Assembly (NCBI GenBank): GCA_013822685.1
Contig: PNKV01000005.1
Coordinates: forward strand, 163,569-227,568
DNA from: Leptothrix sp. (in: b-proteobacteria)
GTDB lineage: Bacteria > Pseudomonadota > Gammaproteobacteria > Burkholderiales > Burkholderiaceae_C
Direction: 5' to 3'
DNA length: 64,000 bases
Of this stretch, positions 6,869 to 9,802 are shown piece by piece. The notes under the pieces were generated by a model. That model searched no databases. It was not told where the DNA came from and saw only the letters and a program-made list of their open reading frames with translations. A program made the position numbers and the translations under genes. Numbering within the stretch: position 1 is the stretch's first letter; each line of letters starts with the position of its first letter.

Positions 6869-7708
6869 ATGTCACGCAACCCCTACATAGCTACCGGTCA
6901 AGAACCAACGCTGCAGAACTCAGTTTTTGTTTTCATGGATATATTGGGCTATAGCGATCTGATGATTCAAGCCCAAAAGAATGGCACACAGGAAGCCACA
7001 CTCCGCGATTTGCACGCAGCTCTGTCTGCCAGTCGACAACAACTGGAGGACGACGGGCTGCCTCCCGAGCTTCGCGACTTCGGCGAGAAAGACTTCTACG
7101 CACTTAAGGCTTTCACCGATAACATCGTCATTGGATGGCCAGTTCACTCTGACGCAGAAGCAGAATTTGGCAGCGCCTTTATGCGACTAGCTTTGTTTCA
7201 GTTCAATATGGCAATAAAAGGCTACTTTGTTCGCGGAGCCATGGCAGTTGCTCCTGCCTACATTGACGAAATTGCTGTGTTTGGTGATGCACTTACCCAA
7301 GCGTATTTGGGTGAAAGCAAACTGGCACGTGACCCAAGAATTATCTTGGTCGATTCAGCGGTTGCTGCTGCCAAGCAACATTTGAATTACTACCATCCAC
7401 CTGCGCATGCGCCCCACGTACGGGACATCTTGCAAGACTCAGATGGGCAATGGTTTCTCAACTACCTTGAGTCGGTACTCATTGCAGAACATGAGCACGG
7501 TCCTTTTTACTATGAATTCCTGCAACACAAAGCTGCGGTAGAGCGGAAGCTCGCAACTCACAAAAGCAATCCTCCTGTATGGGCCAAATATGCATGGATT
7601 GCCAGTTATCACAACTACTTCTGCGACCTGCATGCTCGGCACTTTGGAGAAGAGCATCGAATCAACATTGATCTCTTCAAGTCTGCACCTTCGCTCATAG
7701 TGAGCTAG
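6869..7708 (+). CDS. Class III nucleotidyl-cyclase-like protein (cassette gene)
   Basis: FVFMDILGYSDL resembles the first metal-binding motif (FxDIxGFT), ALKAFTDNIVIGW the second Asp motif, followed by VRGAMAVAPAY...AVFGDALTQAYLGES. Confidence 0.65.
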   Translation: MSRNPYIATGQEPTLQNSVFVFMDILGYSDLMIQAQKNGTQEATLRDLHAALSASRQQLEDDGLPPELRDFGEKDFYALKAFTDNIVIGWPVHSDAEAEFGSAFMRLALFQFNMAIKGYFVRGAMAVAPAYIDEIAVFGDALTQAYLGESKLARDPRIILVDSAVAAAKQHLNYYHPPAHAPHVRDILQDSDGQWFLNYLESVLIAEHEHGPFYYEFLQHKAAVERKLATHKSNPPVWAKYAWIASYHNYFCDLHARHFGEEHRINIDLFKSAPSLIVS

Positions 7709-7769
7709 GCCTGCTTCAAATTTCAGTGCAATACTATGAGTGGCTCACCGGTCTAAGTATATGTCACTA

Positions 7770-7835
7770 GCCTAAGTGATAGTTCAACAGGGACGTCAAT
7801 GCTTCGCATTGCCGTCGTTAACTTAGGTGTTAGGT
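7770..7835 (+). repeat. attC-like recombination site 1
   Basis: GCCTAAGTGATAGTTCAACAGGGACGTCAATGCTTCGCATTGCCGTCGTTAACTTAGGTGTTAGGT; ends in GTTRRRY (GTTAGGT); central hairpin GACGtCAATGC-TTC-GCATTGcCGTC; lies just 3' of an ORF. Confidence 0.82.
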
Positions 7836-7864
7836 TTCAACATCAGCAGTCTGGAATACACAGC

Positions 7865-8857
7865 ATGAAAAGAAAACTTCAGGTATTTATCTCAAGTACA
7901 TTCTCGGACCTGATCGAAGAACGGCAGGCCGCCGTTGCCGCGATCTTAAAAGCTGGCCACATACCTGCAGGCATGGAGCTATTTACTGCAGGGGACAAGT
8001 CCCAAATGCAGACAATTGAACGATGGATCGATGAGTCAGATGTCTATATGCTCATTCTTGGAGGTAGATATGGCACCATCGAAAAGATATCAGGTATAAG
8101 CTATACGGAATTGGAATACGATTATGCAAAGCAAAATGGTAAAACCATGTTTGCCGTCGTTACAGCTGAAGATGCATTGAATGAAAAGGTAAAAAACAAA
8201 GGCGTAAACTTCATGGAAAGAGAAAATCCCAAAGAGTTAAAAATTTTTAGGGAAAAAGTTCTATCCAATATTTCCTCATTCTTTTCAGACGGCAAAGATA
8301 TTCGACTGTGTGTGCATGAAAGCCTGGCAGATCTCAGCGAAAACAGAGATCTAAAAGGGTGGATTTCCGCGGAGGAAATTGAAGATCACAAGACACTTCA
8401 ATTGGAAATAAAACGTCTGCGAGACGAAAACTCCGCATTAAAGGAATCACTAGAGCAAGCGGAGAAATTAAGAAGCAAAGCAAGCTTGCATGGCGTGAAC
8501 GCAGAAGATTTCGAGCAACTAATATCAATACTTGGCGCAATTCAAATCAATATTCCCGTAAGCCTTGCAAACGGAAAAGAAACGACACGAGATTTACTAA
8601 GCTTGTTTTACCGCAATAAAGATTACATCTTAACAGGCGTCACAAACTCGAACACCGCCGATGAGATGGAGGAATTTACCTATCATAATATATGCCCAAA
8701 ATTACAAACACACGGACTAGCTGACAATGAAAAGGTGGTTGGCGTTCGATATAGAAGAAGCTACGTGACAAAACTCGGCATTTCGTTGCTATCGTATTTG
8801 GAGCGGAAAGAGTTGCAAAAGCAAATCCCCACCTTAACGGTGGAGGATGAAACCTAA
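7865..8857 (+). CDS. DUF4062 (TIR-like) domain protein with coiled coil and C-terminal domain (cassette gene)
   Basis: MKRKLQVFISSTFSDLIEERQAA...GMELFTAGDKSQMQTIERWIDESDVYMLILGGRYGTIE...SYTELEYDYA is the DUF4062 signature; coiled coil around LEIKRLRDENSALKESLEQAEKL. Confidence 0.85.
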   Translation: MKRKLQVFISSTFSDLIEERQAAVAAILKAGHIPAGMELFTAGDKSQMQTIERWIDESDVYMLILGGRYGTIEKISGISYTELEYDYAKQNGKTMFAVVTAEDALNEKVKNKGVNFMERENPKELKIFREKVLSNISSFFSDGKDIRLCVHESLADLSENRDLKGWISAEEIEDHKTLQLEIKRLRDENSALKESLEQAEKLRSKASLHGVNAEDFEQLISILGAIQINIPVSLANGKETTRDLLSLFYRNKDYILTGVTNSNTADEMEEFTYHNICPKLQTHGLADNEKVVGVRYRRSYVTKLGISLLSYLERKELQKQIPTLTVEDET

Positions 8858-8947
8858 ATGTCGGTTGAATGCGGACGCCAAAACTGCCATGGTCTAGTGT
8901 CGGTACAGTCCGCGCTGCGTCGATGGTTAATAACCTTGGCGTTAGGC
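8852..8947 (+). repeat. attC-like recombination site 2 (divergent, ~96 bp)
   Basis: Ends in TTGGCGTTAGGC (GTTRRRY consensus); left ACCTAAA; core stem GCGGAC/GTCCGC; between two same-strand ORFs. Confidence 0.62.
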
Positions 8948-8985
8948 ATGTTATCCAACACCAATCACAAGGGATGTATCCTCAC

Positions 8986-9699
8986 ATGAAACGCTCTGTC
9001 GCACTTTTGCTCATAGCTGCAGCACTTTTTTCTGGCTGTTCAAAACCCACCGATGCTGTCATACCAAGTGATATATCAAGCTGGGACAAAGAGTTAGCTC
9101 CCGTGCTAAAAAAACTTCCAGAACAAGATAGGGAAAGAGTAGCCGCTTATTTAATGAGGGCCAAAATGGGTGAGGCCTTTGGAGGAAAAGGTCTTCCACC
9201 TGGCACGACAATCGGAGAGGCTCTCGAAGGCCAAAAGAAATGGATAGCAGAACAAAGGGCAAAGCAAGCGGCCGAAGAATCTCTTAGAAAAAAGCTTGCG
9301 CAAGAGCGCACGGCTGCAATACAAAAACTTGGCCAAGCAGTCACAGTCACTTTGCTAGCTAAGCACGAGGTGCCAAAAAACTTTGATCTTGGAAGATATA
9401 GCGAATATCAAGAATTCCGCATTGGAGTTCAAAACAATTCGGGAAAGGCCATTACGGGCGTTGCGGGAGAAATTAAGTTCATCGACGTCTTCGACAAAGA
9501 GATTGGCGCAGTGAATTTCCGTATTACTGAAAACATAGAGCCAGGAAAGTCGGCTACTTGGATCGGCGGTCGCGACTACAACCAGTTTATAGAAGCCCAC
9601 CGCTCGGTGTGGAACGCAGAAGAAGGGAAATACACTACAAAGTTCGAGCCTGAAATGGTTGTTTTTAAGGACGGAACAAAGCTTTCTGTTTCAAAATAA
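8986..9699 (+). CDS. Small putative lipoprotein (cassette gene)
   Basis: MKRSVALLLIAAALFSGCSKP lipobox; C-terminal beta-rich EFRIGVQNNSGKAITGVAGEIKFIDVFDKEIG domain. Confidence 0.75.
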   Translation: MKRSVALLLIAAALFSGCSKPTDAVIPSDISSWDKELAPVLKKLPEQDRERVAAYLMRAKMGEAFGGKGLPPGTTIGEALEGQKKWIAEQRAKQAAEESLRKKLAQERTAAIQKLGQAVTVTLLAKHEVPKNFDLGRYSEYQEFRIGVQNNSGKAITGVAGEIKFIDVFDKEIGAVNFRITENIEPGKSATWIGGRDYNQFIEAHRSVWNAEEGKYTTKFEPEMVVFKDGTKLSVSK

Positions 9700-9736
9700 C
9701 TAGCAGGTAATGTCGGCCTTAGCTCATCTGTTTACA

Positions 9737-9802
9737 GCCTAGCTGGTCGTTCAACAGGGACATCAATGCTTCGCATTGCTGCCCGTAGCTTAGACGTCAG
9801 GC
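9737..9802 (+). repeat. attC-like recombination site 3
   Basis: GCCTAGCTGGTCGTTCAACAGGGACATCAATGCTTCGCATTGCTGCCCGTAGCTTAGACGTCAGGC; same 66-bp length and about 52/66 identical to site 1 by hand alignment. Confidence 0.8.

What the first reader, a model, noticed from the sequence alone, without database searches (positions are those of the whole stretch)
6869..9802. Integron gene-cassette array without an integrase in the window (CALIN-like), carrying probable defence genes
Seen: three short intergenic sites (7770-7835, 8852-8947, 9737-9802) end in GTTAGGT, GTTAGGC or GTCAGGC, near the attC GTTRRRY consensus, and hold imperfect inverted repeats. Each lies 3' of a single same-strand ORF. Sites 1 and 3 are both 66 bp and share GTTCAACAGGGAC[G/A]TCAATGCTTCGCATTGC. 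The genes have visibly lower GC than the surrounding chromosome. Established: this ORF-attC arrangement defines integron cassettes, and arrays without intI are called CALINs. I saw no tyrosine recombinase among the window ORFs.
Basis: partly seen in the sequence, partly recalled or inferred. Interest (0 to 1): 0.85.

Follow-up and report, generated by a model that had tools for sequence, protein, structure and literature searches.

The report
Integrase-less defence cassettes at hotspot
Three genes in this Aquabacterium genome are genuine integron gene cassettes, one a likely anti-phage NAD-destroying enzyme, parked at a second chromosomal site far from the integrase that normally moves such cassettes; sister species hold different genes at the same site, so it looks like a turnover hotspot for defence genes.

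Summary
Confirmed: the window holds a real cluster of attC sites lacking an integrase (CALIN). The first site's 32-bp core recurs exactly in the integrase-bearing array of a sister species. The genome's own intact intI lies on another contig. The genus is Aquabacterium, inferred from record titles.

Cassette 1 is a lone class III cyclase-like protein. Cassette 2 is a DUF4062 protein, homologous to the Swarozyc antiphage NADase with its catalytic Glu kept. Cassette 3 is a lipoprotein-like gene; its 70% homologue in another genus is a complete attC cassette. The following DRT8 reverse transcriptase and PD-(D/E)XK pair has no 3' attC and is not a proven cassette.

Close relatives carry different cargo between the same two flanking genes. 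Two carry convincing attC sites in the same orientation, downstream of a conserved promoter-like sequence. Best reading: a secondary, trans-fed landing site for cassettes of the genus's sedentary integron, within a defence hotspot. CALINs, CALINs at conserved loci and defence cassettes are all known, so this is a new member of a known kind; the trans-feeding step is inferred.

The parts
4053..6077 (-). FadH-like flavin oxidoreductase, left chromosomal flank of the hotspot
   Evidence: 94-98% identical and in the same place in G038, G032, G031 and G016
6622..6650 (+). promoter-like sequence TTGACC-17-TATGCT reading into the cassettes
   Evidence: found by pattern scan (promoter-like hits overall are no more frequent than in shuffles); both hexamers invariant in five genomes
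6850..6857 (+). degenerate insertion core (TAG|TAGGC), equivalent to GTTAGGC in G032 and GTTAGGT in G031
   Evidence: homology between the five genomes falls to chance level soon after this point
6869..7708 (+). cassette 1 gene, 279 aa, class III nucleotidyl-cyclase-like protein
   Evidence: model pLDDT 88; Foldseek best hit human soluble guanylate cyclase, E 5.7e-5, probability 1.00
7770..7835 (+). attC site 1
   Evidence: 36.4 bits, E 1.5e-6; 32-bp core exact in G038 integron array
7865..8857 (+). cassette 2 gene, 330 aa, DUF4062 / Swarozyc-like NADase
   Evidence: PF13271 106.8 bits; PDB 10wc KpSwz E 8.1e-28
8852..8947 (+). attC site 2, overlapping the stop codon of cassette 2
   Evidence: 29.7 bits, E 6.1e-5
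8986..9699 (+). cassette 3 gene, 237 aa, lipoprotein-like (signal peptide and lipobox by inspection)
   Evidence: 70% identical homologue in another genus is a complete attC cassette
9737..9802 (+). attC site 3, with non-canonical GTCAGGC core
   Evidence: 35.0 bits, E 3.3e-6
9841..11445 (+). defence reverse transcriptase, DRT8
   Evidence: PADLOC Drt8 527 bits, E 1.3e-158; YVDD motif in the translation
11442..12179 (+). RT-associated PD-(D/E)XK nuclease; no attC follows it
   Evidence: PADLOC RTasPDDEXK 202.5 bits; no attC
12258..12410 (+). 3' remnant of a VOC-family gene that is longer in G032; approximate right edge of the variable segment
   Evidence: blastn with L036 from window 12269 and sequence comparison
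12407..12952 (+). DUF4256 protein, right chromosomal flank
   Evidence: PF14066 280 bits; present in five genus-mates, joined to fadH in three of them

Best explanation
This is a CALIN: three genuine integron cassettes (cyclase-like gene, DUF4062/Swarozyc-type NADase gene, lipoprotein-like gene), each with its own attC, at a chromosomal site away from the genome's integron. They most likely derive from the pool of sedentary-integron cassettes shared by this genus (Aquabacterium). The integrase, encoded elsewhere in the same genome, probably inserted them in trans by attC recombination at an attG-like GTT core downstream of a conserved promoter-like sequence, which would let them be expressed. 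The site is a hotspot whose cargo is replaced between sister species and is rich in phage-defence genes. Shown: attC identity, kinship with integrase-linked arrays, variable cargo at conserved flanks, defence homologies. Inferred: insertion in trans by IntI, the attG-like core, expression from the promoter, and phage defence itself.
For: Independent attC model hits exactly the three sites. Exact 32-bp attC core in the integrase-bearing array of G038 (integrase). Sites 1 and 3 are 87% identical to attC sites in that array, against at most 66% for shuffled sites. Intact own intI, 463.7 bits, on contig C3. The array is internal to its contig and has syntenic flanks, so it is not an assembly break. 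Different cargo at the same place in G038, G032, G031 and G016, with attC sites at 43.4 and 28.1 bits in G032 and 34.2 bits in G031. Promoter hexamers invariant in five genomes. The junction core is GTTAGGC in G032 and GTTAGGT in G031, and homology is lost beyond it. Homologues of cassettes 2 and 3 occur as attC cassettes elsewhere, one in an integrase-linked array. Defence homologies.
Against: The insertion core in G000 itself is degenerate, and G000 and G032 still look alike for about 20 bp past it, so the left edge is approximate. G038 has no attC at this locus and G016 only a doubtful one (18.6 bits; best identity 0.67, no better than shuffled). No empty site was found. Much of the hotspot cargo, including DRT8, lies outside attC-bounded units. 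No expression or recombination data exist.
Confidence: 0.78

Rival explanations
1. The locus is a decayed complete integron: an intI once stood next to fadH and was lost, leaving its promoter, attI-like core and a few cassettes.
For: A conserved promoter-like sequence followed by a GTTRRRY-type core at the array head looks like a Pc-attI arrangement. CALINs have been proposed to be degraded integrons (PMC9024848).
Against: tblastn finds no intI remnant in the left flank in G000 (best hit 7 aa, E 0.69). The left flank has no similarity to integrase-proximal upstream regions of the genus beyond 12-13 bp matches. None of the genomes examined has intI at this locus.
Confidence: 0.15
2. A fragment of the main integron array was moved here by homologous recombination or a transposon, and has stayed as passive cargo.
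For: The attC types match those of sister-species main arrays. The right edge truncates a VOC gene, as a deletion or rearrangement would.
Against: It would have to happen repeatedly at the same site and in the same orientation, since G032, G031 and G000 carry different attC cassettes there. No transposase was seen among the ORFs listed between the flanks.
Confidence: 0.15
3. The three sites are ordinary extragenic palindromes or terminators and the genes are a normal low-GC defence island.
For: The VTS hairpins are palindromic, and the region lies in a defence hotspot.
Against: Exactly three hits of an attC model trained elsewhere; extrahelical base and R/L box layout kept; 32-bp identity with an integrase-linked attC; cassette geometry of homologues in other genera.
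Confidence: 0.02

Closest known systems
[quoted passage not shown]
   Same: At least two attC sites with cassette genes and no nearby intI, on a chromosome whose genome also holds a complete integron.
   Different: Here the same locus in sister species carries other cassettes, so it appears to be in turnover, and it shares its site with non-cassette defence genes.
CALINs at conserved chromosomal loci in Xanthomonas (PMC12444791)
   Same: Arrays away from the main integron recur at fixed loci across species.
   Different: In X. citri pv. citri the cassettes at the secD locus are the same two throughout; here contents differ between species. Defence genes were reported as rare among Xanthomonas cassettes.
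attG insertion of cassettes into bacterial genomes (Loot et al. 2024, Nat Microbiol, cited in PMC12901181 and PMC12444791; the paper itself was not held)
   Same: Proposed mechanism: IntI joins a cassette to a non-att chromosomal GTT core.
   Different: The experimental attG insertions were described as spread over many loci; here one locus is reused and has a conserved promoter-like sequence.
Swarozyc DUF4062 antiphage NADase, KpSwz (PMC13174449; PDB 10wc)
   Same: Cassette 2 is homologous over residues 3-202 (TIR-like domain and start of the helical stalk); the catalytic Glu (E97 of KpSwz) aligns with E82.
   Different: The C-terminal auxiliary domain is not recognisably similar, and the preprint's main text does not mention integrons.
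DRT8 defence reverse transcriptase with PD-(D/E)XK nuclease (PADLOC models Drt8 and RTasPDDEXK)
   Same: Both proteins match, adjacent and in the same order.
   Different: Lies directly after an attC site but has no attC of its own.

Membership tests
CALIN | two or more attC sites in one cluster | tested here: met
   three sites, E 1.5e-6 to 6e-5
CALIN | no integron integrase nearby | tested here: met
   no TIGR02249 match on contig C5; the intact intI is on C3
CALIN | not a complete integron broken by assembly | tested here: met
   array internal to a 227-kb contig, flanks syntenic with G038, G032 and G031
Integron gene cassette | single ORF followed by attC on the same strand | tested here: met
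   ORFs 6869-7708, 7865-8857, 8986-9699, each with attC behind; not met for DRT8
Integron gene cassette | same gene or attC found in integrase-bearing or other arrays | tested here: met
   attC core in G038 array; cassette 3 homologue in G360; DUF4062 cassette in G030 main integron
Integron gene cassette | excised or inserted by IntI | not testable with these tools
   needs a recombination assay
attG insertion site | G^TT core at the left junction with cassette TTRRRY tail | tested here: inconclusive
   GTTAGGC in G032 and GTTAGGT in G031, degenerate in G038, G016 and G000
Swarozyc (DUF4062) NADase | DUF4062 TIR-like domain | tested here: met
   PF13271 106.8 bits; PDB 10wc E 8.1e-28
Swarozyc (DUF4062) NADase | catalytic glutamate (E97 of KpSwz) | tested here: met
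   E82 aligns with chain residue 82, taken as E97 on the assumption that the chain starts at residue 16; E82 invariant in 27 homologues
Swarozyc (DUF4062) NADase | auxiliary C-terminal domain needed for defence | tested here: inconclusive
   similarity to KpSwz ends at residue 202; the ORF2 model as a whole is low confidence (mean pLDDT 60.7)
DRT8 | UG-type RT plus PD-(D/E)XK partner | tested here: met
   527 and 202 bits
Class III nucleotidyl cyclase | fold and two metal-binding Asp | tested here: met
   Foldseek E 5.7e-5; D24 at least 90% conserved and D84 invariant in 50 sequences
Class III nucleotidyl cyclase | transition-state Asn and Arg | tested here: not met
   consensus VFGxALxEAYxGES lacks them (by inspection)
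Pycsar cyclase (PycC) | match to a PADLOC model | tested here: not met
   only a GajA match at E 0.011

The most novel reading that the evidence does not exclude
The fadH-DUF4256 junction is a second, integrase-free cassette platform of these bacteria: a fixed promoter plus an attG-like core that the distant sedentary-integron IntI repeatedly loads in trans, so that defence cassettes are copied from a silent main array into an expressed site and replaced as phages change.
Probability: 0.3. Interest if true: 0.7.

Novelty: new member of a known kind. Interest (0 to 1): 0.45.

Why it matters
CALINs are common but usually read as dead remains. This locus, with different attC cassettes in sister species at one site behind a conserved promoter-like sequence, is a natural case in which integrase-free arrays may be actively loaded in trans. 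It also puts a newly described antiphage family (DUF4062/Swarozyc) into integron cassettes, and offers an uncharacterised lone cyclase-like cassette family (384 homologues) as a defence candidate.

Tried and rejected
1) A rule-based attC finder (R/L boxes plus pairing) was not specific enough on this window, so a covariance model was built. 2) A truncated attC behind the DRT8 operon at about 12208, which looked plausible by eye, scored -12 to -15 in the 5'-half matrix and -1.4 bits in the model: rejected. 3) An intI remnant or attI copy in the left flank: none found. 4) An empty site in more distant genus-mates: fadH is there, but the flank, DUF4256 and attC sites are not. 5) Gene families shared between hotspot cassettes and the held main arrays: only a 39% DUF4062 match in G030. 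6) The attC in G016 is no better than shuffled sequence by identity and is not counted. 7) A scan of genome contigs for close DRT8 relatives found none. 9) Rfam gave no match at gathering thresholds, so no support came from it.

Full report
Observation. The three sites at 7770-7835, 8852-8947 and 9737-9802 are real attC sites. To test this independently I collected 33 attC sites lying next to integron integrases in genus-mates, aligned them without any window sequence, checked that the R and L boxes pair and covary (97.6% of cells paired, 47 double changes against a shuffle mean of 15), and built covariance model R1. Over the whole genome its only other hits are the main integron array on contig C3, one near the start of C1 and one near the end of C28. 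The 5' half alone, as a sequence matrix, also ranks the three sites first.

Where the integrase is. The window lies in the middle of a 227-kb contig, in a genome of 4.2 Mb. An intact integron integrase (360-aa open frame, 463.7 bits against a cut-off of 265) lies on contig C3 and its array runs off the contig start. Thirty-three of 42 genus genomes have such an integrase.

Kinship of the sites. The L''-plus-hairpin core of site 1 (32 bp) recurs exactly in the integrase-linked array of G038 (integrase at C4:562534, attC at C4:537800), with two near copies in the same array. Sites 1 and 3 are 87% identical over their whole length to attC sites in that array, while shuffled versions reach at most 66%. 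The array therefore draws on the cassette pool of the genus's sedentary integrons.

The locus. fadH on the left and the DUF4256 gene on the right are syntenic in G038, G032 and G031 (in G016 the two lie on separate contigs), but what lies between differs in each. G032 has two ORF-attC units (43.4 and 28.1 bits), including a RelA/SpoT-domain gene. G031 has one attC (34.2 bits) followed by a GmrSD-type gene and others. G038 has a ParA-like gene and a cyclase-like gene 24% identical to cassette 1, with no attC. G016 has a small ORF with a doubtful attC (18.6 bits) and a 489-aa P-loop-like protein. All convincing attC sites are in the same orientation. So the locus is a defence hotspot, of which attC cassettes form the fadH-proximal part.

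The head of the array. A TTGACC-17-TATGCT promoter-like sequence at 6622-6650, pointing at the cassettes, is invariant in five genomes. Promoter-like matches in this region are no more frequent than in shuffles, so the evidence is the conservation. About 200 bp further on the five sequences share a short core, GTTAGGC in G032, GTTAGGT in G031 and degenerate in the others, after which identity falls to 0.21-0.25. This is what insertion at an attG-type site would leave, but in G000 the core is degenerate and G000 and G032 resemble each other for about 20 bp more, so the point is suggestive only.

The genes. Cassette 1 (279 aa) has no Pfam match. Its AlphaFold model (mean pLDDT 88) matches class III nucleotidyl cyclases (Foldseek E 5.7e-5, probability 1.00). 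Both metal-binding Asp positions and the Lys are conserved, but the transition-state Asn and Arg are not, so NTP binding is more likely than classical cyclase activity. Cassette 2 is a DUF4062 protein. Its closest solved relative is KpSwz (E 8.1e-28), the Swarozyc NADase that causes abortive infection when it meets phage portal protein (PMC13174449). The catalytic Glu aligns with E82, invariant in 27 homologues. The portal-sensing domain is not recognisably conserved, so a different trigger is possible. Cassette 3 is lipoprotein-like by inspection; its 70% homologue in another genus is a complete cassette between two R' cores. DUF4062 genes are also attC-bounded in the main integron of G030 and preceded by an attC in G310. 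The DRT8 reverse transcriptase and its PD-(D/E)XK partner (527 and 202 bits) follow attC 3 but have no attC behind them; a candidate truncated attC failed two tests.

Mechanism. Most likely the IntI encoded on C3 recombines cassettes in trans into this site, where the conserved promoter-like sequence could express them; over time attC sites decay (site 3 has a GTC core) and non-cassette defence genes accumulate behind. The attC identity, the kinship with integrase-linked arrays and the variable cargo are shown. The trans step, the attG-like core, expression and phage defence are inferred.

Known background. CALINs, mobilisation of CALINs in trans, CALINs at conserved loci in Xanthomonas, attG insertion, and defence genes in integrons are all in the literature (PMC9024848, PMC12444791, PMC12901181 and references therein). 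The finding is therefore a new member of a known kind, with an unusual degree of site reuse and a new link between Swarozyc-type NADases and integron cassettes.

Noticed in passing
L034:14601-15314: A second, distant (24% identity) cyclase-like gene sits in the same hotspot of sister species G038, suggesting that lone class III cyclase-like proteins recur at this locus.
   Followed up: partly
G038:C3:543721-554641: G038 has a second integron: a partial integrase match (248.9 bits, 190 positions) beside a run of strong attC sites, about 390 kb from the fadH-DUF4256 hotspot on the same contig.
   Followed up: no
L007:3148-3345: Presumed attI region of the genome's own intI, with repeated GCCTAAC-TGCCAGGTTAT motifs and a GTTAGGC core just before the intI start codon; the main array is cut at the contig start.
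   Followed up: no
window:6100-6560: GC-rich repeats with GCGCAAGG...CCTTGCGC palindromes between fadH and the promoter, varying in copy number between the five relatives.
   Followed up: no
window:13534-15261: Two neighbouring ORFs end in VPEPQ-type C-termini, apparently PEP-CTERM exported proteins.
   Followed up: no
window:16700-18000: A second low-GC patch (GC about 0.48) holding a 350-aa minus-strand ORF that is 71% identical in G031.
   Followed up: no
L098:5629-6792: A DUF4062 gene as an attC-bounded cassette inside an integrase-linked array of another Aquabacterium genome (G030).
   Followed up: yes
L095:2308-3777: A 489-aa P-loop-like protein of unknown family occupies the hotspot in G016.
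   Followed up: no
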